DNA from: Pavlovales sp. CCMP2436 | Taxonomy: Eukaryota > Haptophyta > Pavlovophyceae > Pavlovales | NCBI GenBank assembly: GCA_026770615.1 | Contig: MU631315.1 | Location: 665,362-682,020, forward strand | Reading direction: 5' to 3' | Length of the DNA: 16,659 nt | Notes under the pieces: generated by a model | Told to the model about the DNA's origin: nothing | What the model saw: only the letters and a program-made list of their open reading frames with translations | Database searches by the model: none | Part shown: positions 1 to 15,602 of the stretch, piece by piece | Numbering within the stretch: position 1 is the stretch's first letter | Layout of the letters: every line of letters begins with the position of its first letter | Made by a program: the position numbers and the translations under genes

Positions 1-3000
1 CCGACGACGACGGCCCACCGCAGAACCGCCAGCGCCGCGGTGATGCAGTGGAGCCCGCCATGCCAACGCGCGCGCCCAACCGCGCGCGCCCGGAAGACGA
101 GCGGGGCTCGGCAGTAGACCATCTCGATGTGATGGATCTGGCCGGGCTCAACGGCAACGTGTTCTCCATTGACGCGGGCAAGAACTCCCCCGAGCACCGC
201 GAGAACTGAGCCGAGTTCAACACCGAGGTGCTCACTCACCTGCAGCACGCCACCACCGACCTCGAGCACGACCGGTGCTACAAGCTGATGATCGTTGCAC
301 CCTCCCTCTTCTTCCGCAAGTCGGCGCGCGGCGGCCACCGCACAGTGCAAGCCATCGCGAACCGCTTTGCCGCCTGGCGTTCGGGGGACTACGCCTCGCT
401 CATTGACGGGTGGGCAAAGGCTATCGCCCTCAGCCGGGGCAGTTAGCCGCGCGAGCGGACCGAGCTCGACAACGAGGTGAAAAAGGCACTCGGCAAGCTC
501 GAGCGCGGCCTCGTCTCGCACGCCGCTCGCCTTCTCGAGAGCCATGGATTCGCAGACATCTTCAACCCCGAGATCTTGGAGCAGATGCGCCTCAAGCACC
601 CAATCCGCAAACCAGAGAACCGTATGGCAGACTCCCTCCCGATCCCAGACCCGAGCGAGCGCCTACGTTCTTCCTGAGACGGTCAGGCGCGTGTACAGCG
701 CACTGCCCCGCGAGAAGGCGCAAGGCGCATTCGCTTGGCGATAAGAGATGCTCACCGCGTTAGCCCCGTCGGTCCCGTTTGCAAGCGAAGCGGCCAACGA
801 GGCTGTGAGCTGCAACGCTTGGTTCGCCACGGAGCTTGCCAACGGCGACTTTCCGCCCTGGTTCAACTTCGTCCTCGCCGCTGTCCGAGTCATCCCGCTG
901 CACAAGAGCGACCAGATGCCCCTGGCGGGGGAGACGCCGGACGTCCGCCCGATCGGCATCTCGTGCGCGCTCCGCCGGGCTCTCACCCGCACCATCTTCG
1001 CCGAGGGTGAGCTGCGCGACACGCTGCGCGACTACCTCTCGCCTACACAGCTCGCAGTCTTCGTCCCGAGCGGTGGCACCAAGCTTGTGTTTGCGGTACG
1101 GGAGCTACTCGACGCCCACCCCGAGTTCTGCGCGCCTTAAACTCCGTAACCCGCGCTGGCTTGCTCGCCGAAGTGCTCGACAACCCCACGACAGCACCGA
1201 TGGCCCGCCTGCTACACTTCCTCCTATCGCCCAAGTCGCTGAACTTCGGCGGCTCCGGCGAGTTCCTCGAGCAGATTCTTGCGTTCTGCAGCGAGGAGGG
1301 GGTGTAGCAGGGCTCTGTCGAGGGGATGATCGCATTTGCGATGGCAATCCGCGCCTCCCTTGGGGTGCTAGACGCCGAGCTTGAGGCTGGTTGTGGCGGG
1401 GCTGCGCTCGCTGGTGCAGACGACGTGACTGCGCTCGGCACGCCTGCCATCGTCTTCCCGGCCGTCGACAGGTTCCTGGCCTCGGTGCACGCGAAGCTGG
1501 GCCTCGAGGCCAACCTGATCAAGATCGTCAGCTACATCTCCCCCGACCATGCCGCTGAGCTTGATCGCGTCCGAGTCATGTACGGCGTGCCCCTCGGCTT
1601 CGCGTGCTCTGCCGACGGCTCCATCGCCCTCGGCATAAAAATATACGGCATCCCGCTCGGCTCGGTAGAATTCGTCGCCCTCACCCTCGCCTCCAAGTGC
1701 AATCAGATCACCGGCACCTCTCAGAAACTCAACTCTTTGCTTGGTCTGAAGCACAACAAGGCGCTGTGGGCGATCACAGTCAACTCGACGGCACACAAGG
1801 GTGGCTACTGGGCTCAGCACTGCTTCCCCGACGAGAACATCGACTTCTGCCTCGGCGTGGACAACGCCATCCTCAAGCAGGCGTCTGTGGCGCTTGGCTG
1901 CGACCCGACCACCGACTGGCTGGCGCACAAGCGCCTCTACCTACCGACGCGCCTGGCCGGCCTCGGCTTACCCTCGCTCTCCGAGACGCGCTCGGCCGCC
2001 TTCGTCGCGTCGGCGGCACGCGCAGCGACCTCCTACCTCGATCAGCACGACGCGACGGGCACAGTGACGGTGCACGGCGTCCTCGAGCGGCCGTCAATCG
2101 CGGAGCGAATCGGGTGTGACTCCTTCGCCGCACCCGAGTCGCAGGGCTTGCGGAAGTTCGGCGACACCGGCTCACGCCTCGGCGCGGCAATCATCGCGAC
2201 CGGCACCGCCCTGCGCGCTCGCGTGCCACCCGGGTACACGGGCGAGCTCTGCGTGTTACGTATGCCCTCAGAGGAGATGGGCCTGCGCGTCAAGGGGCTG
2301 CACGGCGCCGGCCTGCAGGCGGCCATCACGTCGGACTTCAGCAGATTGAGCACGAGACGCTGAGTGAGCAGCTCGCGCACCGGCCACGAGGAGACTGCCA
2401 GATGCAGGTCTTCCGCAACATCTCGCGCGAGAGCATGATCGTCTTCACGGTACTCCCTGCCGGTCTCGCCAAGGTGCCCAACGACGAGTGGACCAAGATA
2501 TCCGCACGTGCCCTCGGCCTCCCGAGCCCCGCGTGCGCTCACCTCGTCGGGCGCCCACTCCTCCAGATCTCCGGCCGCAACACCACACACGTTGACACCT
2601 ACGACGACACGCTCGCTGCAGCCACAAATTTCCAGGGCGGCCACTTCGCCAAGCTCCAGCACGACCCCGTCGTCAGGGCGGTCGCGCGCTTCGCGACCGT
2701 GTATGGCTGCACCCAAGCCCAGGCGGAGAACTCAGAGATTTTCGGCTCCGTTCTGCGGCAGAACCCCGGTTCGATGCGGACCGAGGAGGCGCTTCTCCGC
2801 GCGCGCGGCTACAGGCGACGCCTATGTGGAGCTCGACCAGCCTGATGGACAGGCCGCCGTTGGTCACATCGTCGAGATGAAGACGGTCCACTACGGCCTG
2901 ACGCACTACAACGCGGTCGCGCCGACGCGCGGCCACGCGGTAGAGAACCGCTCGGGCAAGCTCGACGCTGAGCGCAGGAGGCAGCTCCAGCAGACCGACC

Positions 3001-3499
3001 GCGAGGTTTTCGGCACGCGAGAGGGCCAGGTGGGACTGATGGAGCAGCGCCTCAACGGTTTCCCCCCGTCATCGGCATAGCGACCGGCGGCTTCGGGGAG
3101 CAGTCAAAGAGCCTTGACAACCTTCTCAAGAACTTCGCTGGCATGGGTGCGGAGACGTGGATGGGCAAGCTCAGCGCGCCGACGACGATGCAGGCGCACA
3201 ACATGCTTCTCGGGCTCATGCGCAAGTAGCTCGGAGTGATCGTGGCGCGCGGCCACGCCAGGCTCATCCTTGCCCGCGCGCGCTCGCTGCACATGCAGAC
3301 TGCGCGCGCGGTCGCTGGTGCCCGGGGTGCACCTTGGTTCCAGCGCACCGGCCGCTCGGCAAACGGGCCCGAGGACGCCCCTGCGCACGCGGACGGCGCG
3401 TACCGTGACGACAACTGGCGCAGCCACAATGCCGACCGGGGCGCACGCCTCGGCCGCGGCGGCCGCGGCGGCCGCGGCGAACAGGGCACACGCACCTAA
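1..3499 (+). mobile_element. Decayed LINE-like (non-LTR) retroelement, copy A, cut by left window edge
   Basis: This region is the remnant of a retroelement related at protein level to the minus-strand copy at 8366-12969. The two share, in the same order, an N-terminal segment with a His-Leu-x-Val motif and Ala-Gly, a leucine-rich segment with Phe/Leu-Arg-Lys, an RT palm, a thumb-like region and a C-terminal Glu-x-Lys-Thr domain. The similarity is clear but far from identical, so the two are old and separate insertions. The first ~110 bases are GC-rich and show no readable homology; the 5' part, where a ubiquitin/ORF1 region would lie, is outside the window. No poly(A) tail is visible after 3499; a G-rich tract follows. 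LTRs, integrase and retroviral protease were not seen, which favours a non-LTR class. Confidence 0.75.
111..3499 (+). pseudogene. Reverse transcriptase / nuclease polyprotein pseudogene (copy A)
   Basis: The protein can be followed only by changing frame: ~111-677 (frame of base 111), 748-1132, 1141-2363, ~2364-2810, ~2810-3065 and ~3065-3499. In-frame stops are TGA 207, TAG 444, TGA 675, TAG 1305 and TAG 3227. RT landmarks are RPIGIS-x-ALRR at 946 (fingers), QGSVEG at 1308 (motif B), Ala-Asp-Asp at 1416-1424 (motif C, the catalytic Asp pair) and YGIPLGS near 1645 (motif E-like). The motif A aspartate is missing: after HPEFCA near 1132 the sequence jumps to a segment reading NSVTRAGLLAEVL, so a deletion removed it. 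The C-terminus has VEMKT at ~2871-2885, matching the Glu-x-Lys of copy B, and an Arg/Gly-rich tail at 3440-3480. It is non-functional. Assignment to an RT is firm; the nuclease label for the C-terminus is inference. Confidence 0.75.
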
Positions 3500-3750: not shown

Positions 3751-4479
3751 ATGGGCAGCAAGAAGAAAGGCTAGCAGAGCACAAAAGCCCCTACGAAGGA
3801 AGAAGCCGACACGATCACTAGAGATCTACGGACAAGCGAACCGGCTGGCAACCTGAGAGCGCTACTGGCAAGGGTAAACCTAACCCACCACGCTAGCATA
3901 CAAGGTGATGGAAACTGCCTCCCCTATGCTGTGCTGAGAAGCGCAGGAAGGACGGTTAGCTGGGAGGCAGCCATAGCACTACGAAATGCGGCAATCACAC
4001 ATGCCCGCAGCCTCCCGCAACACATCCAGGAACAGTTTAATCTACGCAGACCGGAGAACGTAGGTGACCCTATGGGCAATAACCTTGACCACCGGCTAAT
4101 CCGTAACGTTTGGCCAATCGAAGCGCAAGCAAAGTACGGACCACCTCACTTCGGACCAAATCAGGCAGCATGGATGAACGATAACATGCTGCACAGCATC
4201 GCTACATGCGTAGGCAAAGATGTGGTTCTAACTAATCAAGAGACTGGAGCAGGGGCAAGTGCATAAATTCATCGCTATATACCGCGCCGAGCCTCTGAAC
4301 GGCCTCTTACCATACAGCGCAAACAGAAACGGGTGGACAGCCCGGCCTAGAGCTAGCTCAAAACCCTATCTGAGCTTATCACAGAGTCGCGCAACGGAGG
4401 AAGGATGATGTGCGTAATCTCCATCGATGAAGGCAAGACACACTTTGAAGCAACAGAAGACAGTCTGACCCAAGGATAA
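3751..4479 (+). pseudogene. OTU-family cysteine protease (deubiquitinase-type) pseudogene, catalytic residues retained
   Basis: OTU enzymes are papain-like cysteine proteases that usually cleave ubiquitin or ubiquitin-like conjugates. From the ATG at 3751 the frame reads MGSKKKG, then TAG at 3772, then on to the OTU signature IQGDGNCLPYAVLRSAGR at ~3898-3951. Asp-Gly-Asn-Cys supplies the catalytic Asp/Cys motif. A second conserved block, WMNDNMLHSIA near 4171-4203, fits the OTU Trp-x-x-x-x-x-Leu helix. The frame is lost near 4255, where a TAA at 4264 appears, is readable in another frame to ~4355, and returns for CVISIDEGKTHFEAT near 4411-4455, where His of THFE is the expected catalytic His. 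It ends at TAA 4477. The minus-strand copy at 13444-14133 aligns throughout, including the frameshifted part. It lies 3' of RT copy A on the same strand. OTU identity is well supported by motifs; the gene is broken. Confidence 0.7.
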
Positions 4480-5719: not shown

Positions 5720-6075
5720 GTTGCGTGTTCAGGGTGCCAGTGTCAGGTGTTCTCGGTGGTGATTGCTCGTTTTGAGATTTTGAATGGAATTTTCTTGCAT
5801 TTCTCGTGCGCGTAAATATTGATTCGATTTAGGCACTCGAGCTGAGAAGCGGTGTTTCAGGGCCGATTGTAATTTTGATAATTGGTGTTTCAGGGCCGAC
5901 TTTAGGGCCCGATTGTAATTGAGATAATTGATGTTTCAGGGCCGATTCCCGGGATTAGATGTAAGGGGTATTGGTGAAAGTGATGAAGGTTGTTTTCAAC
6001 CTTCACCATCTGTTCGCGTACTGAGGGGCCTACTGCGGACCGCTCATTTTGGTGAAGGATGAAGGTTATATTTAT
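5720..6075. other. Non-coding spacer with minisatellite and hairpin
   Basis: No convincing gene is present. Besides the GTTTCAGGGCCGA repeats there is a hairpin at 5985-6004 (GAAGGTTG, TTTT loop, CAACCTTC). A GGTGAA...GATGAAGGTT motif occurs at ~5973 and again, shortened, at ~6050, just before the dispersed 112-bp repeat. Confidence 0.6.
5849..5955 (+). repeat. Short tandem repeat with GTTTCAGGGCCGA core (three copies)
   Basis: The core GTTTCAGGGCCGA occurs three times, near 5854, 5887 and 5932. Copies 1 and 2 are followed, directly or after a short insert, by a GATTGTAATT...GATAATT segment. Spacing is about 33 and 45 bases, the longer unit carrying an internal partial repeat of CTTTAGGGCC type. 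It is minisatellite-like and non-coding. Confidence 0.8.
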
Positions 6076-6187
6076 GATAGGGATTCAAGCTGGCGTCTGA
6101 CTGTTCTGAATGTTGTGCTGGTCTGAGCGCTGCGTCGCTCATTGCCTGCTGCCTGGTTTAGTCGGCTGCGCTGGTTTGGGCGCCACC
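6076..6187 (+). repeat. Dispersed ~112-bp repeat, copy 1
   Basis: This starts GATAGGGATTCAAGCTGGCG and ends GGGCGCCACC. It is repeated in the same orientation at 15491-15602, over 9 kb away, with only a handful of mismatches (about 8 to 10 by eye). The flanks are unrelated, so it is a mobile or otherwise copied unit rather than part of one large duplication. No ORF, tRNA-like promoter boxes or poly(A) tail was seen. Confidence 0.85.
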
Positions 6188-6464: not shown

Positions 6465-7100
6465 CCAAAAGAATCAAGTTTTCAAGGTAATCATACCGAC
6501 CGTTTTAGCCGCATACAGCTAGTGGGGTCCACCCTTGAATTGACTATTGACGTTCGGCCACTGATGGTCTGTACAGAAGTTAGTTATGTTCGAAAGCAGA
6601 AAGCACGTCTTAATTAAATTCCGCCGTCCTGCCGCCCGCGTCAACTTAGTTATTCTTAGTTGTCAGTGGCCGGGTCACGGCGGGTGGTTGGTTGCGTTCG
6701 GCAACTCAGCGATGAAATTTTGTCAGTGATGGCCCTTCAGCTGAATGAACTCAGTTGGAGGTACCTGTTGGCACGGCGGATTCACTTTTCGGGGTGACGT
6801 CGTTATGAACCGACGACGATGAGGGGTCTCGACATAATAAATTTTATTACCAATAACAATAGTAACCAATGCTACAACAACGCGCAATTTTGAAGTGAAC
6901 TTCGCGGCATCGTTGATGGGGCAAGAATCCATGGCGACACGTCTATGACAATGATCAAAGCTGCTAGCGTTGACGTTCCCGAGCTAGCGCCGTGGGCGTC
7001 GGCGGGACTCGGCGGTCGGGGCCAGTGTCAGTGACGTGGTGGATCGACGTGCTCTTCGCGACGACCTTCACCCTTTACACTCCGCAATTCTTCCCCTAGA
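6465..7100. other. Non-coding region upstream of the DUF3110 gene
   Basis: No supported gene. It holds the third partial copy of the 330-bp repeat (6765-6850) followed by an AT-rich stretch, and then a GC-rich stretch at 6975-7100 that should contain the promoter of the plus-strand DUF3110 gene. I could not identify a defined TATA box or initiator. Confidence 0.5.
6765..6850 (+). repeat. Diverged third copy of the 3' end of the ~330-bp repeat
   Basis: CACGGCGGATTCACTT, TGACGTCGTTATGAACC and GACGACGA-TGAG follow in the same order and spacing as at 4768-4850 and 5165-5246, ending in an AATAAATTTTAT tail. Weaker similarity may extend upstream to ~6700 (CAGCGATGAAATTT). Confidence 0.75.
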
Positions 7101-7244
7101 TGATTGAGGATGACTATCGCACCCACCACGCGTTGCTGCCCTGCGAGTACCAGTCCAAAAGTGTTAGTTAGTGTCCACATTTCAAAAGTGGTCTTTCACG
7201 TTCATTCATCAGCGTTGAGACCTCGCGCCCAGAGCTACTGCATC

Positions 7245-7284
7245 GCGTCTCAGGAGCTGCTCGTGGTCGCGTCTCAGGAGCTGC
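7245..7284 (+). repeat. 16-bp direct repeat before the DUF3110 start
   Basis: GCGTCTCAGGAGCTGC is present at 7245-7260 and 7269-7284, a period of 24 bases (a multiple of three). It lies just upstream of the preferred start codon at 7299. Confidence 0.85.
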
Positions 7285-7298
7285 CCGCGTCGCCCGCG

Positions 7299-8036
7299 AT
7301 GCTCAGCGTCTCGCGCCCGCTGGTCGCGGCCCTCGTGCTGCTTCTCTCGGCCCCCGCGCGCGGGTGGCAGTCGGGGTCTCTCAGCGCCCTCCGCAGTCCG
7401 ATCGCACACTCGACCTCCTCAGAGTGTTCCAGCCGCTCGACCTGCCGTGCGGCGCGCGAGCCGAGGGCCGTGATGGCACTCGCGGAGGGTGACGCCTTCG
7501 ACATGTCAGAGCTGACGCGGCGGATCGCCAGCCTGCGGGAGGATGTGGTGGTGCAACCTCTCCCTCTCTCCCAGCTGGTGGTGCAACCTCCCGATTTCCC
7601 CCAGCCTCTCCCTCTCTCCCAGCTCTCGAACGAGGATGCCGGTCTCTCCCACTGCTACGTTCTGCTCTTCAACGAAGGATCCAACAACGAAGGGATCTAC
7701 AGCGTTGCTTCGGATGACATTAACGTGGTGCTGGCCTGGGAGACCGAAGCAGACGCCATGAACTATGGCGAGAAGCTGGTCGCGCAAAACATGCCGCAGC
7801 CCACACCAAAACTGTTCCCAATGTCTGACATTAACGAGTTTGTCTCGGAGGCAGGGCTGCACGTCGGCGTAGTGCGTGACGGGATGGATTACACGCCGCC
7901 CTCTCGCACTGTGGACAAGTTTGATTGGGCACCGAGCGGTCCCGCATCGGGCGAGCCCCCGACGCGCGAGACTGACGGCACATACAGCGAGGACCAGCTC
8001 GATGCTTTCAAGCGCCAATTCGAGCGCGGTCTATGA
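7299..8036 (+). CDS. DUF3110-domain protein, probably plastid-targeted
   Basis: The encoded 245-residue protein has a DUF3110 domain at about residues 119-192, with the family hallmark CYVLLFNEGSNNEGIYSV, then VLAWETEADAMNYGEKL and a Phe-Val-rich end. DUF3110 proteins are small proteins of unknown role shared by cyanobacteria and plastid-bearing eukaryotes. I chose the ATG at 7299 rather than the in-frame ATG at 7104, because it starts a signal-peptide-like segment (MLSVSRPLVAALVLLLSAP, then ARG-Trp) followed by a Ser/Arg-rich, acid-poor stretch to ~residue 60. That fits the bipartite presequence of secondary plastids. Residues ~85-110 are duplicated low-complexity (PLPLSQL twice). The C-terminal tail has YSEDQLDAFKRQFERGL. 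It is a single uninterrupted exon ending in TGA, and it appears intact. Confidence 0.8.
   Translation: MLSVSRPLVAALVLLLSAPARGWQSGSLSALRSPIAHSTSSECSSRSTCRAAREPRAVMALAEGDAFDMSELTRRIASLREDVVVQPLPLSQLVVQPPDFPQPLPLSQLSNEDAGLSHCYVLLFNEGSNNEGIYSVASDDINVVLAWETEADAMNYGEKLVAQNMPQPTPKLFPMSDINEFVSEAGLHVGVVRDGMDYTPPSRTVDKFDWAPSGPASGEPPTRETDGTYSEDQLDAFKRQFERGL
7545..7624 (+). repeat. In-frame internal duplication in the DUF3110 gene
   Basis: CCTCTCCCTCTCTCCCAGCT occurs at 7557-7576 and 7605-7624, 48 bases apart, which is exactly 16 codons. The flanking GTGGTGCAACCTC is also repeated 30 bases apart. The duplication keeps the frame, extends the Pro/Leu/Ser-rich linker between the presequence and the domain, and looks recent. 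Confidence 0.85.
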
Positions 8037-8365
8037 TTTTGAGGAGGTGCCTGTGTGCAGTAATCGCATCGGTCAATCTGCATAATTATTTAGTTTTGAA
8101 ACTAAAGATTGTTAAATGCTTTATTATATTAAAATAAATAAGTTAGCGCTTCAGCAATCCGCTCATCGGGCTCATCGCCGCCATGCCGAGCGGCTCGGCG
8201 CAGGGTCGGGTGAGCTGCGAGTCGGGGCAAACGGGGCCTACCAGAGAGCGGGCCCGGGATTTTTTTAGGCAACGACTTACTTAATAGGAAGACAGGCAGC
8301 AGCAGTCAAGCAAATCTGATGTGTACGGCCAACGAATTCAGCCAGTGATCGCCCAGGTGGCGGGC
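8037..8365. other. Intergenic: 3' UTR of DUF3110 gene and 3' border of retroelement copy B
   Basis: After the TGA, an AT-rich stretch at ~8085-8145 with AATAAATAAG-like sequence probably serves as the 3' end of the DUF3110 transcript. From ~8150 the DNA turns GC-rich. GCCCGGGATTTTTTTA at 8252-8267 holds seven T (A7 on the minus strand) and could be the short poly(A) tail and flank of the minus-strand retroelement. Confidence 0.45.
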
Positions 8366-11300
8366 CTACGCGGCTTTATGCCACGACCGCGTCTCTTGTC
8401 GCTGGTGGTATACGCCCCCAGCCCACTCCTTGGTGCCGTCGTCGTCCGCGCCACCGTGTGCTGCGCCGCCGCCACCGATGTTCTCCATACGCGCGCGCGC
8501 TATGATGACCTTTGCGTGTCCACGCAAGGCGCACATACCGATCTCCTGCCGCATCTTCCACAGGAGAGCGGTGCGTGCGAGCTGTTCAGAGGGAGCTCCC
8601 GTGCGCCCTCGCAGTGCGCGTGCGCCCATGCTGGCGAAGTCAGCGACCAGCGTTTCCAAGCCGACCGAAAACTCCTCAAAGGCGCCAACTGCGAGAGCAG
8701 TGAACGGGTCGCCGCCTGAGGGGCAGAAGGTCAGCGCGCGGGCCTCCATTGGGCCAGTCTGCCCGGCTGGTGTGTGGAAGAAGTCGCGGTCGAGCTTGAT
8801 GAGTTCCTTGATGCGCTCGCCAGGTAGCGCGTCGGCGCGCCTGCCCACCGCGCCCTGCGGGTACTGCCCGTCGGTGTCCTTGTACCGAGTAGGGCAGAAC
8901 GCGATGGTCTTGAGTTCGAATAGCCGCGGGACTGCACGCCTACCCCAGTGGTCGTACTCGGCGTAAAAGTTGACCTTCGACCCAGGTCGCCGGCCGACTC
9001 CGCCGTAGTAGAGGTGGTAGGCCGCTGGGTTGGCGGCGAGCACCGAGCTAAAGATGTCTCCAACCTCGGTGCGCGCGAACGCACCCACGGACCTCGAGAA
9101 CTCCGCGAGGAGGGCGAGGATTGGGTCGTGCCGGAGCTTGGTGATGTGGCCGCCGGTGACGCCTGCACCCGTGGCTGCGACAAGGTTGTCTCCGAACGCG
9201 TCGATGAGGTGGCCGAAGAGCCGCGCGCCGCGCGCGACGAGGCCGGCGCAGATGGAGCTCTGGACGCCGAAGAAGCGCGCGGTGATCTCCACCCACTCGC
9301 CGGTGTTGCAGAGCCCGTAGCCGTCCGGTAGTGCAGCGACCCAGGCGGAGCTGTTGCGATCGAGGCTCCTGAAGAGGTGTATGGCGCGATCGCTGCGGTG
9401 TCGCGCGCTGATCTGCATCTTGAGCACGTCGTACCTGTGAGCCTCCAGGTCGTCGTCGGTGAGGTCCTTCTGCATGTTGAGGCACAGCCTGCCGGCGTTC
9501 CTGCGTGCCGTCGGCCATGCTTCCCCTGGAGGTAGGTGGAGCACGGAGGTTGGCCGATCTCCGTTGAGCCCGCTCGTGTGGCGATGCCGGCCTCCTGCTG
9601 CAGCAGCAACCAGCAGCAGCGGAAGGCCTGTCCCTGTAGCGGCGGTGGTAGAGAGCCTGCCCCGGAAGACAGCAGCTGGTACGCGCGCCAGCCGTGCTGC
9701 TGCATGTCCACAAAGGAGTTCCGCTCCACCGTGCGCTCGACCTGCGGCAGCTCGAGCATCCCGCGCTGCGTGACGCCACTGGCCGGGTTGGTCGCGTCGG
9801 CCCACACGTCGAGAAAGGCTGGCACCGCCTGCACCATGGCGCCACAGAAGGCGGCCGGCGCGATGTCGACCATTCGCCGAAGTCCGGCGCCACGGTAGCG
9901 GCGGGGAAGCGCGAGGCGGGCGGTCGCGAACTGATCGTCGTCGAGCGAGACTCCTAGCGCGTGCGTCGCCTGTGCGTGGATGATCGCGTCGAAGCGGGTG
10001 CATGCCTCGCGCGAGTGGTCCGGGTAGCAGTGCCGCGCAAAGTACTCGAACTTGCGCGCCGTGGAGAAGAGGGTCAAGAGCCAGAGCTGTTGCTTGTGTG
10101 GCGAGCTGAGCGAAGTGATTAGCTTTGTTGAGATGCATGCGATCTCGTCACACTTGTCAGCTAGGGCAAGCTTGATGTACTCCTCCGACCCGATGGGGAT
10201 GCCGTAGCACATGACGCCGTAGTACGGAGTCACGCCGTCGAGTAAGAGGCTGCGCGTCACCAGACCGCGGTGGGTGTCGAGGGAATCGATGTGGGCCTCA
10301 TCGATCCAGCACTCGCACTTGGCCGGTTGCACGACGAGGCCGAGCCGCGCGAAGAGCGCGTCATGGAAGCGCTGCATCGCCATATAGACGATATGGGGCG
10401 GGCCGACCGCCCGTACATCGTCGTGGCAGGCCCGAGCGCCCCCACCGTATGGCCGCAGCTCTGCGTCCAGCACCTGTAGCTCGGGGTGAATGGAGATCGC
10501 GAAGGCGACTCCGCCCTCCACCGACCCTTGGGCGACACCTGTCTCGCCGTCCCTGCCCATGGGCGTCAAGCCGCCACCCTTGCCGCTGACGAAGATGGGG
10601 TACTTTGGGGCAAGCGTGGCGTAGAAGAGGCGTGCGAGCGGGGCAAGGCCGGAGGAGCTGGAGAGGGTGCGCGTCACCATCTCTGCGCGGTCGCCCTCGT
10701 TGAACGCGTTGTAGATGTCGGAGCCGGCGATGCAGAAGCTGGGGTTCTCGAGGAGCTCGCTCACCGAGGAGCTCGCGCACGCCAAAGATGAATTTCGTCC
10801 CGCCTGCCGAGACGAGCACTCCCAGCTGCTGCGGGAAGAGGTAACCCTCGATCTCGCCGCGAAGGCCCTTGTTGAGGAAGACTCCCTTGGTGAGACCCCG
10901 TCTCAGCGCGCTCGAGATGCCGATTGGCCGCGCAGACTCCGCGACGCCGGCCTGGACCGCACACTTGCGGAGTGGCACGCACCGTGCGGCGCAGAAGACA
11001 AGTAGAACCAGGAGGGCAGATCGCCGTTGGAGAAGGATGATGCCAGCCAGGCGTGCGACCCGAGCACGTGGCGTGTAGCGTGAGTCCTCGGTATGCCTCC
11101 TCCATCTCCGTGACGCCGACAACGAGACGGTTGGTGGTGTCTAGGCCCGGGATGACCGCTGGCATGGGAGACCTCCTGGGCGAATGCTTGGCGAGCATCT
11201 GCTGAAGCACGGCCGGGTCCGCGATGTCAGCGAGGCCGTGGCTCTGAAGCAGCTTTGCGGCGTCGGAGAACTTGCCCTTGGCGAGAAAGGCGACGGCCGC

Positions 11301-11572
11301 CTTGATGTCACGCTCGGGGTTGGCTGGACGGGAGCGCCGGCTGCTGCGCTGCTGTGCCTCCGCCGCGCAGTCTCCAGACCAGTCAGCAACGAGGCTGCCA
11401 AAGTCTCCCCGCCCCCATCGGTCAAAGCGGGAGGCGAGCAGTCTGGCGCTCGCCAGACGTCTTTGGCGGCCCCTGCGGGCCGCGGGCTGCTTTCGGAGTA
11501 GTAGCGAGGGTAGGATCAGCAGCATCTTCAGCGCTTGCACCTCCTCCACCTCGTTGTCCGGCCGGAGTTGCG
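8366..11572 (-). pseudogene. Reverse transcriptase / nuclease polyprotein pseudogene (copy B)
   Basis: The N-terminal part has MLLILPSLLLRK at ~11525 and a segment matching copy A (KFSDAAKLLQSHGLADIADP). RT motifs are RPIGISSALRR at ~10930, motif A DIYNAFN at 10719-10699, motif B GVAQGSVEGG near 10530, motif C Cys-His-Asp-Asp at ~10425-10417 and YGIPIGS near 10195. The catalytic aspartates are all present. The C-terminus contains FELKT near 8905-8918 and GPMEARALTF, both shared with copy A. Frame changes occur at ~11090, ~11025, ~10765 (a 16-base tandem duplication) and ~9600, so no intact protein is made. The stop is TAG at 8366-8368. RT identity is clear. I infer a PD-(D/E)XK-type nuclease for the Glu-x-Lys domain, which would fit restriction-like-endonuclease LINEs. 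Confidence 0.75.
10749..10776 (-). repeat. 16-base-period tandem duplication breaking the RT frame
   Basis: CGAGGAGCTCGC (plus strand) occurs at 10749-10760 and 10765-10776. The 16-base period is not a multiple of three. It lies exactly where the reading frame passes from the RT finger part (FGVRELL) to the part with motif A. It is a clear molecular cause of one frameshift. Confidence 0.85.
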
Positions 11573-12969
11573 GATGGCTTCGATGATGAGGACCGTTGCG
11601 GTGGCCCAGGGCTCGTGGAAGTCTCGGGGTATGGCATCGAGTTGCCGAGACGTGTTCCCCGCGTGCCCAGCGACTTCGGCAACAGTGAGGTGGTCGAGGA
11701 CGGAGAAGTCGCGGCCGGTCGGGTCTGCGCTTGGCCGTGTGGGTAGGGGCATGGTTGGGCGCTCGACGTCCTCGCTCGACGATGGCGCTTGCAGTTGACG
11801 ACGGGGTGGTGGTAGCAGTCTCCCATGCCCACCAGAGAGCGCGTTGCAATCGCCGCGCGCGCGCCCTCCTGCACCCCCCCCGTCATCCCCCCACCACGGC
11901 CGCGCCTGTAACCTCCGCCATACGCACCGCGATGCAGTGGCGACCGCTGCGGTGGCCGCTGCTGCGGCGGTGGCGGCGGTGGCTGAGCTGGCGGTCTTGG
12001 CAGCGGCTGCAACAGTGGTACGGAGCCGGAGATGTGGTCCTTCCAAGCTTCCCCGTCAAGGGTAGGGCGTAGGAGCGTAGCTGCAGCTTCGTCGGCAACG
12101 TTGGTGGCGTTGTCGAGGACATCTCTGCGTGCGACGAGGAGCATGTTCGCAAACACGCTGGCATCAGCTTGCGCCCGGACCCTGAAGGCATGCTTGGCAG
12201 CATGGGCCTCGAAGAGCGAGGGCCGGTTGGCCTGTGCTGAGGTCGAGCCACTTCCGCCACTGAGCCTCATCCATCCGGTGGTGCGGTTGTTGGGGAAATT
12301 GTCCACATCATCTAGGACGAGAGCGATGACTCGGTTGCGGTCGTCGTCGAAGGCAAGTGTGTCAGCCTCGTCGATGACTTGCAGTGCACGCTGGCAGACG
12401 GCGAAGATCAAGGTGGTCGCGAGGTCATGAGCCACTGTGCAGCCTTGCACCATGTGCCAGAGCTTGTCGATGTGCAGCCCCTTGCCGCAACTCACATTGA
12501 ATGCAGTCTTGAGCGTCTTGTCGCGGGCCTTCTGCGCATCCGCACGGCTCTGTCGCGGGGGGATCTTGCTAGGCTCGATGGCTTTCGGCGCGACCGGCAG
12601 CGCAGCGAGGATCGCGCGTGCAAGCTCGCGACCCGATCTAGAGCGCTCTACCCTGATCGGGCCGCCCGCCGCGAGAAGCAGCGCGTATATCTCGTTGTAG
12701 GAGACTACGATGCTGGCTGCGAAGGAGGGGTTGTTTGACGCGCCGCCTCTCATGCGGCTCGTGAGGCGCAGTGTCGCATGATTCTCGACACTGCACTCGA
12801 CGAGTGAGTGCTGGTCATCCAACCGCTTGCCTTCGCAGGTGAGGAGTTGGAGGTCGCGTGCGATGCCGGTCTAGAGCGTGATAGCGTCCTTGACCGTCTC
12901 GACCGTGAGGTATGGCTTCACCTCGACCACCAGCGTCTGGCCAGCGAAGTTCACGTCAAAAATGTGCAT
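11528..12969 (-). pseudogene. Retroelement ORF1 with N-terminal ubiquitin domain (broken)
   Basis: From the ATG at 12969 the frame encodes a 76-residue ubiquitin domain, interrupted by TAG at 12871-12873. It continues in the same frame into an otherwise unrecognised ~230-residue region (with VIALVLDDVDNFPNNRTTG) and then a Pro/Gln-rich and Arg-Gly-rich stretch (PPPPPPQQRPP; GGYRRGRGGG). The latter is a typical RNA-binding type. Soon after, CYHHPVVNCKRH could be a zinc-binding motif. At a G8 run (11874-11881) or shortly after, the frame must change to reach RDFSVLDHLTVAEVAG near 11700, which has a counterpart at ~114-150 in copy A; another change near 11570 leads to the RT part. ORF1 and RT may form one polyprotein. 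An upstream in-frame ATG at 13092 would add 41 Ala/Ser/Pro-rich residues. Confidence 0.65.
12742..12969 (-). other. Ubiquitin domain ending in Arg-Gly-Gly, fused to ORF1
   Basis: The codons from 12969 to 12742 align with ubiquitin at all 76 positions without any gap. By eye, about 30 positions are identical, including Met1, Ile3, Phe4, Gly10, Pro19, Val26, Lys27, Ile30, Gly35, Ile36, Gly47, Lys48, Leu50, Asp52, Leu56, Leu67, Leu69, Arg72, Arg74, Gly75 and Gly76. The domain starts MHIFDVNFAGQTL and ends LRLTSRMRGG, then Ala-Ser-Asn. Ubiquitin fusions are normally cut after Gly76. Differences: Ile44 is Thr (the main interaction patch), Lys63 is Asn, Lys11 is Gln, and position 33 is a TAG stop. 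The gene upstream and downstream is retroelement-related. This is a ubiquitin fold with high confidence; whether it was cleaved is inference. Confidence 0.85.
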
Positions 12970-13092
12970 GGGGCTTGACTCGACATCGTGCGCCGCGCTC
13001 CGCGCCAACGCCCCGCTCAGCGCCGCGCTAGGTGACACGCCCAACTGTGCACTCGGCGGCGGCGGCGCGCTCAGTGAAGCGCTCAGCAGCAC

Positions 13093-13443
13093 GTCCGACG
13101 GCGAAGTAATAGTGGGTGGGCGCCAGTGGGGGCAGCGACGGTGTGTAAAAGTCTATAAAAACGTCCGGTCCCGTTCGCGGTCTCCCAGTTAAAACTGGGA
13201 CCAGCTCCCGAGCCCCCGGATACCGTCATCCCCGCTAAGACTGATCAGGCACACGACTGTCGACGACACTCGACTTGCGCGCTGATCAACCTGTGCTGCA
13301 TCTCGCTCGTCTCGAAAGGCGGCCCGCCTGCGCACGCACCGCACCTACAGCACATAATACAAGCAGAGAAAGTGAACTTCTGCGCCAGCCCACCTCCCCA
13401 ATCCCTCTCCCCCCTACCCTCTCCTTGCTTGTCAGTTGTTCTA
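13093..13443. other. Spacer between OTU remnant and ubiquitin-ORF1
   Basis: No gene is supported. It has stops in the minus frames, a perfect hairpin at 13183-13200 (TCCCAGTT, AA, AACTGGGA), and a C/T-rich stretch at ~13385-13430. It could hold the 5' UTR or internal promoter of ORF1, but no defined signal is visible. Confidence 0.5.
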
Positions 13444-14133
13444 TTAAATTTCTCGTGTCGTCTCGAAGTGTGTCATGTTAGCGTCGATGGTGATTACGCA
13501 TATTTGTCTGCCTTGCCCGCTGCGCGATGCCGTGAGCAATTCACCGAGGGTCTTATTTTGCCGTACTCTGCCTCCTGTAGTAGTTCGGTGTATCCATGTG
13601 GTACTGCCGATCCGCAGGTGGTGTGGGGTGTATGCATAATATAGGTCGATAATAATGTCGCCCACTTTGCCGGGGTCTCTGCCTAGTTTCAGCACCGCGA
13701 TGTCTGTTCCCATGACTGTCGCTATGCTGTGGAGCATGTTGTCTGACATCCATGCGGCCTGGTTTGCTGGGAAGTGGGGAGGGCCGTGTTTTGCTTGCGC
13801 TGCTATTGGCCAGAAGTTGGGTCACTTACTGTGGTCTAGGTCTTTCCCCATGAGGTCATCTGGGTCTATATCCGGTCTGTATAGCCTGGGGGCCTTCTTA
13901 ACTTCCATCGGGAGGGCGATTGCTAGTGTAATTGCCTCCTCCCGTATTTGTATGGCTGCGTTCCAGCTGGCTGGTCGCCCTGAGCTCTTTAGTGCCGCAT
14001 AAATCAGGTAGCTTCCGTCGCCATTCACGTGTTCTGGGGCTAGCGCTACTGACGCCAACAGGCGTGAGCGCCCGGGATTTTTACGGGTTTTAAAAAGCAA
14101 GCGATATTCGACAAGCGAGCGCTTTATTGACAC
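13444..14133 (-). pseudogene. OTU-family cysteine protease pseudogene with catalytic Cys replaced
   Basis: The frame from the ATG at 14133 runs to TAA at 13444 with only one interruption, TGA at 13822-13824. The OTU signature is VNGDGSYLIYAALKSSGR near 14027-13974. It aligns with Asp-Gly-Asn-Cys of the plus-strand copy, but Asn is Ser and the catalytic Cys is Tyr (TGC to TAC). The second block, WMSDNMLHSIATVMGTDI, is strongly conserved, as is CVITIDANMTHFETT near the C-terminus with its His. The middle (DIIIDLYYAYTP) is in frame here, which shows that the plus-strand copy is the frameshifted one. The N-terminal ~20 residues have no match in the other copy. It lies directly upstream of the ubiquitin-ORF1 on the same strand and could be the first gene of that element. 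It is catalytically dead as written. Confidence 0.7.
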
Positions 14134-14518: not shown

Positions 14519-14640
14519 CATATATATATATCCCCATATATGTATATATATATATATATGTGTATATATATATATATATCTCTTTATATATATATATAAA
14601 GATATAGTTATAGTTTTATATAGATTTATAGCTGTTTGTG
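14519..14640. repeat. AT-rich microsatellite (TA)n with interruptions
   Basis: Long TATATA runs are interrupted by CCCC, GTGT, CTCTTT and AAAGAT. Parts can fold on themselves (CTTTATATATATATATAAAG). It is simple-sequence DNA. Confidence 0.95.
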
Positions 14641-14748: not shown

Positions 14749-15006
14749 GGGTCAGAATCCAAATTAGTGGCCAGTCCGGGGAAATTCGAAAAAAGTCCGG
14801 AGAAAATCCTCCGGAGCAACTCAGGAACCGGAGGTGGTACCGCGGAGTTAGTTGCAGATTCGTGAATGGAGCGGCGCCCCATTCACGAATCTGCAACGAA
14901 CTCCGCGGTACCACTTCGGGGACCATGCCTTTCTTTACGCTTCCGAACGCTGAGAATCGGAAATGTTAGTTACATAAAGTATGATATCGACCCAAAAAGC
15001 ACCTGT
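14749..15006 (+). repeat. Tandem repeat unit 1 (~258 bp) with 36-bp inverted repeat
   Basis: The unit starts GGGTCAGAATCCAAATTAG and ends before the matching GGGTCAAAATCC at 15007. Inside is a 36-bp inverted repeat: left arm 14834-14869, loop 14870-14878, right arm 14879-14914, with a single mismatch. Unit 2 is similar along its whole length. Confidence 0.9.
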
Positions 15007-15310
15007 GGGTCAAAATCCGAATTAGTGGCCAGTCCGGGGGGAAAATAGAAAAAAAAATCCGGTGAAAATCCTTTGGAGCAACTCAAGAACCGGAGGTGGT
15101 GCCTTGGAGTTTGTTGCAGATTCGTGAATGGGACAGATTCTTGAATGGGGCACCGCCCCATTCACGAATCTGCAACAAACTCCGCGGCGGTGCCCCATTC
15201 ACGAATCTGCAACAAACTCCGCGGCACCACTTCGGGAATCATGACTTTCTTTTCGCTTCCGAACGCTGAGAATCGGAAAGTTAATTACACGAAGTATGAT
15301 GTCAACCCTA
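15007..15310 (+). repeat. Tandem repeat unit 2 with extra copy of the inverted-repeat arm
   Basis: It repeats unit 1 and carries the same hairpin arms: left arm 15096-15132, right arm at ~15156-15188, and the same right arm again at 15193-15230. The two right arms share CCCCATTCACGAATCTGCAA. A short extra ACAGATTCTTGAATGGG lies near 15134. The unit closes with CGCTTCCGAACGCTGAGAATC, as in unit 1. Confidence 0.9.
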
Positions 15311-15490
15311 GAGGCACCTGGGAGGCACACGAGGTGGGCTCCGACCGTCGAGGAGGGCACTATTGGACATCAGCTATCGACACTTAGCGCGCAGGGGTGA
15401 CCAATGTCTACTACTTCGTCCCGGCCACCACTTTTCCCCCTCCCTATTGCGGAATCGCGCCACGAATTCGGATTTCAACCCTCATATACT
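15311..15490. other. Non-coding spacer
   Basis: Nothing recognisable was seen between the end of the tandem repeat and the dispersed repeat at 15491. Confidence 0.5.
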
Positions 15491-15602
15491 GATAGGGATT
15501 CAAGCTGGCGTCTGACTGTTCTGAATGTTTTGCTGGCCTGAGCGCTGCGTCGCCCATTGCCTGCTGCGTGCCTTAGTCGGCTGCGCTGGCTTGGGCGCCA
15601 CC
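15491..15602 (+). repeat. Dispersed ~112-bp repeat, copy 2
   Basis: It matches 6076-6187 in the same orientation, starting GATAGGGATTCAAGCTGGCG and ending GGGCGCCACC. Its end lies ~180 bases downstream (3') of the stop codon of the minus-strand gene at 15785. Confidence 0.85.

What the first reader, a model, noticed from the sequence alone, without database searches (positions are those of the whole stretch)
12742..12969. Ubiquitin domain at the head of a retrotransposon ORF1, ending exactly in Gly-Gly
The match to ubiquitin is gapless over 76 positions, and Arg-Gly-Gly falls exactly at positions 74-76, followed directly by element-encoded sequence. A ubiquitin-fusion layout implies that host or element deubiquitinases release the protein with a new N-terminus (Ala-Ser-Asn). 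That would be an unusual processing strategy for a LINE-like element.
Basis: partly seen in the sequence, partly recalled or inferred. Interest (0 to 1): 0.87.

Follow-up and report, generated by a model that had tools for sequence, protein, structure and literature searches.

The report
LINE retrotransposon carrying two ubiquitin domains
A many-copy LINE-type jumping gene in an algal genome (likely a haptophyte) carries two ubiquitin-like segments inside its first protein, one of them ending in the same Arg-X-Arg-Gly-Gly tail as real ubiquitin, and host enzymes would likely cut the protein there; the copy in this window is a broken, shortened one.

Summary
The ubiquitin match is real: 76 residues without gaps on the minus strand (12969..12742), Pfam ubiquitin E=1.3e-11. 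The window copy has an in-frame TAG at codon 33. The setting needs correcting: the domain is not at the head of ORF1. This copy is 5'-truncated at 13145. Two subfamilies (Ub2 about 65% identical) share the layout, with about 21 and 17 Ub2 copies. A sister RT family (about 40% identical) has no Pfam ubiquitin hit within 12 kb upstream in 61 listed rows. Ub2 shows signs of purifying selection. Oligo(A) 3' ends mark a LINE. Release after Gly-Gly is plausible, but both domains have lost Ile44, which many deubiquitinases use, so processing is unproven. No relative of the ubiquitin-ORF1 part was found outside this genome, and my paper searches listed no precedent. New variant of a known kind.

The parts
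8260..13145 (-). The element copy (subfamily A), 5'-truncated; 3' end is a run of seven A at 8260-8266
   Evidence: No subfamily A alignment to the window reaches beyond 13145; 3' homology to the A copy in L053 ends at 8270, then the A run and other sequence
12742..12969 (-). Ub2: 76-residue ubiquitin domain ending Arg-Met-Arg-Gly-Gly
   Evidence: PF00240 E=1.3e-11; gapless to ubiquitin (sister copy)
12871..12873 (-). In-frame TAG at Ub2 codon 33 (this copy is broken)
12970..13145 (-). Remnant of the linker upstream of Ub2, in frame; the rest (Ub1, F-box-like/ankyrin module, most of the Pro-rich linker) is missing from this truncated copy
11887..12741 (-). ORF1 C-terminal part after the Gly-Gly (no Pfam hit besides ubiquitin), with a Pro-rich stretch and a Gly/Arg-rich (RGG-like) stretch at 11887-11928
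8366..11752 (-). ORF2 region, broken by frame changes and stops in this copy: ATG-equivalent at 11752, stop at 8366-8368
   Evidence: long open relative P0001
9586..10785 (-). Reverse transcriptase part of ORF2: motif-A-like DIYNAFNE 10690-10719, motif-B-like GVAQGSVEGG 10510-10539, motif-C-like HDD 10402-10431
   Evidence: homologous to P0009, which carries PF00078; coordinates; motif names recalled
8903..8965 (-). D..ExK-like stretch (YAEYD...FELKTI), possible restriction-like endonuclease; not confirmed
   Evidence: read from sequence; profile comparison with the P0009 C-terminus gave no match

Best explanation
This is a non-LTR (LINE-type) retrotransposon whose first protein carries two ubiquitin domains, one on each side of an ankyrin module, and its Gly-Gly ends are predicted to be cut by host deubiquitinase-like enzymes, so that the putatively RNA-binding end of the protein would likely be released from an N-terminal part that may engage the host ubiquitin system. 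Shown by sequence: the order Ub1 - (weak F-box-like) ankyrin module - Pro-rich linker - Ub2 - ORF1 C-terminal part with RGG-like stretch, then an RT; Ub2 and the ankyrin module shared by two subfamilies; constraint on Ub2; a Gly-Gly at the end of both domains. Inferred: cleavage at Gly-Gly, RNA binding by the RGG-like stretch, and the adaptor role of the F-box-like/ankyrin module.
For: Ub2 PF00240 44.5-49.3 bits and Ub1 46.1 bits, cut-off 25.4. Both lie in one stop-free frame in L010 (1,025 codons), and in C104 and C426 both are listed with the same open-frame length (1,125 and 2,663). Ub1 lies upstream of Ub2 in 10 copies, by 1,552-1,573 bases in 6 of the 10. Ub2 lies 1.3-3.5 kb upstream of RT on the same strand in 18 of 57 A/B RT rows. 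A and B share the ankyrin module and Ub2. Gly-Gly intact in 14 of 16 A and 15 of 16 B copies analysed, next residue Ala in 15 of 16 each; residues 72-76 do not differ between the subfamilies although 25 of 76 do. Ub2 dN/dS 0.44 within A and 0.40 within B, reached by 1 and 3 of 300 neutral simulations, whose mean is about 0.8. RT homology through P0009. A and B share a 3' end, with an A run in 7 of 9 ends.
Against: Ile44 and Val70 are Thr in Ub2 of both subfamilies and Leu73 is Met; Ub1 has Lys at the Ile44 position and Pro at 74 (read and the alignment). Many deubiquitinases need that patch (recalled). Zero differences in residues 72-76 between A and B is expected by chance at P=0.13, and the tail is not more conserved among copies than the rest (5/80 and 4/80 changes against 49/1136 and 58/1130). 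The F-box match is below Pfam's cut-off (best E=0.01). No protease domain showed in the frames scanned. Net A-B dN/dS 0.49 has a wide interval, 0.25-1.0. The simulations assume a star tree and no CpG effect.
Confidence: 0.45

Rival explanations
1. The two domains are uncut ubiquitin-like (UBL) docking domains, as in proteins that present themselves to the proteasome or to p97; the Gly-Gly is inherited and idle.
For: Ile44 patch altered in both domains, Leu71 and Leu73 changed in Ub2, Ub1 tail KLPGG; tail not more conserved than the rest among copies. Ub2 of B copy L045 also passes the Rad60-SLD cut-off (29.4 bits against 23.8).
Against: Gly-Gly kept at the end of both domains and in both subfamilies although Ub2 is only 42-47% identical to ubiquitin. 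Docking UBLs usually use the same patch that is altered here (recalled).
Confidence: 0.3
2. The N-terminal module is an SCF-type adaptor: the F-box-like part binds Skp1, the ankyrin part binds a host restriction factor, and the element has that factor ubiquitinated and destroyed; the ubiquitin domains assist.
For: Ankyrin matches in 8 of 9 scanned copies (best E=3.7e-7) and F-box-like matches in 4 of 9, best E=0.01; the block is shared by subfamilies A and B.
Against: F-box below the curated cut-off wherever a score was shown; no target known. It could hold together with the best explanation.
Confidence: 0.15
3. Passenger: host sequence captured once by an ancestral element and carried along without function.
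For: The sister family C seems to do without it. Many copies are broken.
Against: Kept in frame in two subfamilies; Ub2 dN/dS below neutral simulations; two separate ubiquitin domains in one protein.
Confidence: 0.1

Closest known systems
Linear ubiquitin fusions (Ub-L40, Ub-S27a; recalled)
   Same: 76-residue ubiquitin domain, Arg-Gly-Gly end, next protein follows at once
   Different: Here the domain is internal, strongly diverged (32-36 of 76 identical), lacks Ile44, and sits in a mobile element
[quoted passage not shown]
   Same: LINEs that carry a component of ubiquitin-like protein processing next to the RT
   Different: Those carry the protease; this one carries the ubiquitin-like domains, and no protease domain showed in the frames scanned
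Ginger and Helentron DNA transposons with Ulp1/OTU domains (PMC2836005, PMC4067079; search listing only; domain content partly recalled)
   Same: Mobile elements with parts of the ubiquitin system
   Different: DNA transposons, proteases, not ubiquitin domains (partly recalled)
Host ubiquitin inserts in pestivirus polyproteins (recalled; listing only)
   Same: Ubiquitin inside a polyprotein giving a processing site
   Different: Recent insert of host ubiquitin in an RNA virus; here an old, diverged domain under selection in a retrotransposon

Membership tests
Ubiquitin family (PF00240) | Profile match over the curated cut-off | tested here: met
   Ub2 44.5-49.3 bits, Ub1 46.1 bits, cut-off 25.4
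Ubiquitin family (PF00240) | C-terminal RxRGG tail | tested here: met
   Ub2: 12 of 16 A and 13 of 16 B copies analysed keep Arg72, Arg74, Gly75, Gly76; Ub1 ends KLPGG, so only Gly-Gly there
Ubiquitin itself (conjugable modifier) | Leu8/Ile44/Val70 hydrophobic patch | tested here: not met
   Phe8 (A) or Leu8 (B), Thr44, Thr70 in Ub2
Ubiquitin fold | Beta-grasp structure | tested here: inconclusive
   Single-sequence model: strand-strand-helix-strand-strand, pLDDT 66; 0 Foldseek matches at E<=0.001 and no ubiquitin among the 50 listed
Linear ubiquitin-fusion precursor | Ubiquitin at the N-terminus of the fusion | tested here: not met
   In-frame sequence with Ub1 and ankyrin module precedes it
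Linear ubiquitin-fusion precursor | Cleavage after Gly76 | not testable with these tools
   needs an experiment
Non-LTR retrotransposon (LINE) | Reverse transcriptase | tested here: met
   E=1.6e-9 to P0009, and P0001 is 25% identical to P0009 over 656 columns; P0009 has PF00078 at 9.6e-15. The element's own frames and P0001 give no direct Pfam or PDB match
Non-LTR retrotransposon (LINE) | Oligo(A) 3' end, no LTR, staggered 5' truncation | tested here: met
   Shared terminal sequence, then an uninterrupted run of 5-10 A in 7 of 9 ends; interrupted in L048, absent in L049. 3' flanks differ except L042/L048. Staggered 5' ends. No LTR-like repeats at the ends of the window copy
Non-LTR retrotransposon (LINE) | Target-site duplication | not tested
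   Flanks only looked at by eye
RLE-type LINE (R2/NeSL/HERO-like) | C-terminal PD-(D/E)xK endonuclease | tested here: inconclusive
   D..ExK-like stretch read in sequence; profile comparison failed
F-box protein (PF00646) | Match over cut-off | tested here: not met
   Best E=0.01; 4 of 9 copies at E<=1; 13.3-15.5 bits where shown against 20.5
Ankyrin repeat protein | Match over cut-off | tested here: met
   PF13637 24.3 bits in L043 and 22.7 (at the cut-off of 22.7) in L025; 21.2 in L013, under it; 8 of 9 copies match at E<=1, best 3.7e-7

The most novel reading that the evidence does not exclude
A LINE whose ORF1 protein is a self-contained ubiquitin-system interface: two ubiquitin domains bracket an F-box/ankyrin adaptor, host ligase machinery is recruited against a restriction factor, and deubiquitinases free the RNA-binding ORF1p by cutting after Gly-Gly.
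Probability: 0.2. Interest if true: 0.92.

Novelty: new variant of a known kind. Interest (0 to 1): 0.73.

Why it matters
Some LINEs carry Ulp1-type proteases (PMC4640811, passages). An element that carries ubiquitin domains instead gives a counterpart to them, and a directly testable cut site (Gly76-Ala77). If the ankyrin module proves to be a ligase adaptor, it would be a clear case of a retrotransposon taking host protein-turnover parts into its own ORF1.

Tried and rejected
Rejected: chance match (PF00240 E=1.3e-11, dozens of copies); host ubiquitin gene interrupted by the insertion (Ub2-RT spacing); recent processed copy of host ubiquitin (only 32-36 of 76 identical, two subfamilies). Led nowhere: homologue searches with the N-terminal part and with Ub2-ORF1, none at E<=0.001 among 7,991 and 5,643 candidates (they did not return this genome's own proteins either, so the absence is weak); viral contigs with P0001 and phages; PDB search with the RT profile; structure of the RT (pLDDT 34) and of Ub2 alone; endonuclease profile comparison; NCBIfam. 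Paper searches listed no title or abstract start about a ubiquitin domain in a LINE ORF1; four of the nine listings were cut (20 of 66, 20 of 113, 15 of 32, 8 of 58 papers shown), and only passages of two papers were read. Identity of the genome: seven RT gene models of Pavlovales sp. CCMP2436 match, but none is identical to a fetched locus.

Full report
WHAT IS THERE. On the minus strand, window 12969..12742 encodes 76 residues that align to ubiquitin without gaps and end Arg-Met-Arg-Gly-Gly, followed by Ala-Ser-Asn. Pfam PF00240 scores 44.5 bits, E=1.3e-11. This copy is broken: TAG at codon 33 (12871-12873), and the RT part changes frame and holds further stops.

A REPEATED ELEMENT. The window lies in G000:C9 (119.35 Mb in 703 contigs). 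The ORF1 DNA gives 45 matches in this genome, a lower bound because 40 of 102 candidates were scored. The Ub2 DNA gives 41 rows (40 of 45 candidates scored): 21 at 88% or more (subfamily A, window included), 18 at 75-79%, of which 17 I assign to subfamily B (16 read, C532 not fetched) and one (C18) is more diverged, and two short pieces. Seven RT gene models named Pavlovales sp. CCMP2436 match the RT, so the host is likely this or a close haptophyte; that assembly is reported as 165.4 Mb (PMC9756366, passages), larger than G000, and no fetched locus was identical to a model.

NOT AT THE HEAD OF ORF1. No subfamily A alignment to the window reaches beyond 13145, 176 bases upstream of Ub2; other A copies align to each other for up to the full 1,500 bases fetched upstream. 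In L010, L013 and L025 the Ub2 frame is open to the edge of the fetched DNA (500-501 codons); in B copy L043 for 465 codons; in the other aligned copies it is open for less. L010 holds, in one stop-free frame of 1,025 codons, a second ubiquitin domain (Ub1: PF00240 46.1 bits, ends KLPGG; not gapless), an ankyrin region, a Pro-rich linker, Ub2 and the ORF1 C-terminal part. Searching Ub1 with its 46 preceding residues gives 25 rows, none with a stop inside; eight cover nearly the whole query at 88-100%, and the rest are partial copies, weaker matches and other ubiquitin genes. Ub1 lies upstream of Ub2 in 10 copies, nine of A and one of B (C38, where Ub1 is 50% identical), by 1,552-1,573 bases in six of the ten and 1,130-2,173 in the others. 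For C104 and C426 the genome search lists both domains with the same open-frame length (C426 has N upstream). Upstream of Ub1 in C426 is an Ala/Glu/His/Pro/Asp-rich repeat, in frame by its coordinates, preceded by N.

ANKYRIN AND F-BOX-LIKE MODULE. Of nine copies scanned, eight match ankyrin profiles at E<=1 (best 3.7e-7) and four match F-box (best 0.01, under the cut-off where scores are shown). Two of the nine (L015, L019) are partly out of frame. The block is shared between A and B. I call it F-box-like only.

THE RT. Window 9586-10785 is 24% identical over 81% to P0009 (E=1.6e-9; 9 proteins at E<=0.001 among 7,995 scored candidates), which carries PF00078 (E=9.6e-15); P0001, a 1,148-residue open relative of this RT from a JGI metagenome (84%), is 25% identical to P0009 over 656 columns. 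The element's own frames and P0001 give no direct Pfam or PDB match. RT motifs A, B and C can be read (DIYNAFNE, GVAQGSVEGG, HDD in place of YADD; motif names recalled). A D..ExK-like stretch may be an endonuclease, but the profile test failed. The ATG-equivalent of P0001 lies in the +1 frame relative to Ub2 in 9 of 17 A copies, and in frame in 5 of 11 B copies, so A may have two overlapping ORFs and B one; copy decay prevents a firm statement.

A LINE. Subfamilies A and B share a terminal TAAGTAAGTCGT-like sequence. Of nine ends seen, seven are followed by an uninterrupted run of 5-10 A, L048 by an interrupted run and L049 by none. The 3' flanks differ from each other, except that L042 and L048 share theirs (94% over 299 bases), and the window's 5' flank matches the same repeat further on. 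So some copies sit in one other repeat; whether this is target preference or duplication was not tested. 5' ends are staggered. No LTR-like repeats bound the window copy. Target-site duplications were not tested.

DISTRIBUTION. One search (117 of 310 candidates scored, so incomplete) gave 118 RT rows: 57 I assign to A/B (37-42% identity to the query) and 61 to family C (75% or more), the family whose copy opens this window; rows can be pieces of one copy. Of 57 A/B rows 18 have Ub2 1.3-3.5 kb upstream on the same strand (15 of them at 2.05-2.53 kb) and 5 have Ub1 4.1-5.5 kb upstream; of 61 C rows none has a PF00240 hit within 12 kb upstream. For the other A/B rows the domain's absence is not shown to be a loss: 5' truncation, gaps, contig ends and the scoring limits also explain it. 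Gaps and contig ends were not checked for C either, and a diverged ubiquitin in C below the Pfam threshold is not excluded. RT identity of the A copy to five B copies is 78-81%, to C 37%, so capture in the A/B ancestor is the simplest reading.

SELECTION AND KEY RESIDUES. In 16 A and 16 B copies (five A copies with broken or partial Ub2 and L040 dropped), Ub2 dN/dS is 0.44 within A and 0.40 within B; neutral simulations with a transition bias (star tree, no CpG effect, mean about 0.8) reach these in 1 and 3 of 300. Net A-B dN/dS is 0.49, interval 0.25-1.0. Gly-Gly is intact in 14 and 15 of 16, the next residue is Ala in 15 of 16 each, and 13 and 14 of 16 have no stop in Ub2. A and B differ at 25 of 76 majority residues, none in 72-76, expected by chance at P=0.13; among copies the tail is not more conserved than the rest. 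Ile44 and Val70 are Thr in both subfamilies; Lys48 is Lys in A and Arg in B.

HOW IT LIKELY WORKS. The most likely mechanism is cleavage after the Gly-Gly of Ub2 by a host deubiquitinase-like enzyme, freeing the C-terminal ORF1 part with its RGG-like stretch from an N-terminal module of ubiquitin and ankyrin domains. Shown: architecture, constraint, Gly-Gly. Inferred: the cut, RNA binding, engagement of ligases or proteasome. The loss of Ile44 is the main argument against and makes uncut docking domains the chief rival.

COMPARISON. NeSL elements of nematodes and one nematode Utopia element carry an N-terminal Ulp1-like protease (PMC4640811, passages). None of the titles and abstract starts listed in my searches describes a ubiquitin domain in a LINE ORF1; subscription papers are largely outside that library.

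LIMITS. No relative of the Ub-ORF1 part was found outside this genome, but those searches did not return this genome's own copies either. Independent confirmation in another species is missing. Letters of Ub1 were read from one copy only; others are known by coordinates and identity.

Noticed in passing
window 1038-3283 (+): Copy of a sister RT family (C, 37-42% identical to A/B) with 61 RT rows listed in the genome and no ubiquitin hit upstream; at least one in-frame stop in the RT part of this copy.
   Followed up: partly
window 7104-8036 (+): 310-residue frame with a DUF3110 domain (PF11360, E=5.1e-21), beside the element's 3' end: likely a host gene.
   Followed up: partly
window 13146-13369; L042 7533-7757 and 3' flanks of L042 and L048 (oriented): The window copy's 5' flank is 95% identical to a stretch about 1 kb past the 3' end of the element in L042, and L042 and L048 share 94% identical 3' flanks from the tail on: several copies sit in one other repeat, two at the same point. 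Target preference or duplication not resolved.
   Followed up: partly
window 6075-6187 and 15490-15602: 113-base direct repeats, 94% identical, 9.4 kb apart, bracketing the DUF3110 gene and the element.
   Followed up: no
window 4105-4220 and 13703-13818: Inverted copies (77%) of a stretch; no Pfam match for the frames tested at 3931-4266 and 13822-14133.
   Followed up: partly
window 14789-15279: Two tandem units of hairpin-forming sequence (arms 86-94% complementary), beside an AT-rich microsatellite at about 14520-14630.
   Followed up: no
L053, oriented 6529-8906: A 5'-truncated subfamily A copy directly at the oligo(A) tail of a subfamily B copy.
   Followed up: partly
L056 (C426, 5' of Ub1): Ala/Glu/His/Pro/Asp-rich tandem repeat ahead of Ub1, in frame, preceded by N (352 of 601 bases); the true N-terminus is unknown.
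   Followed up: no
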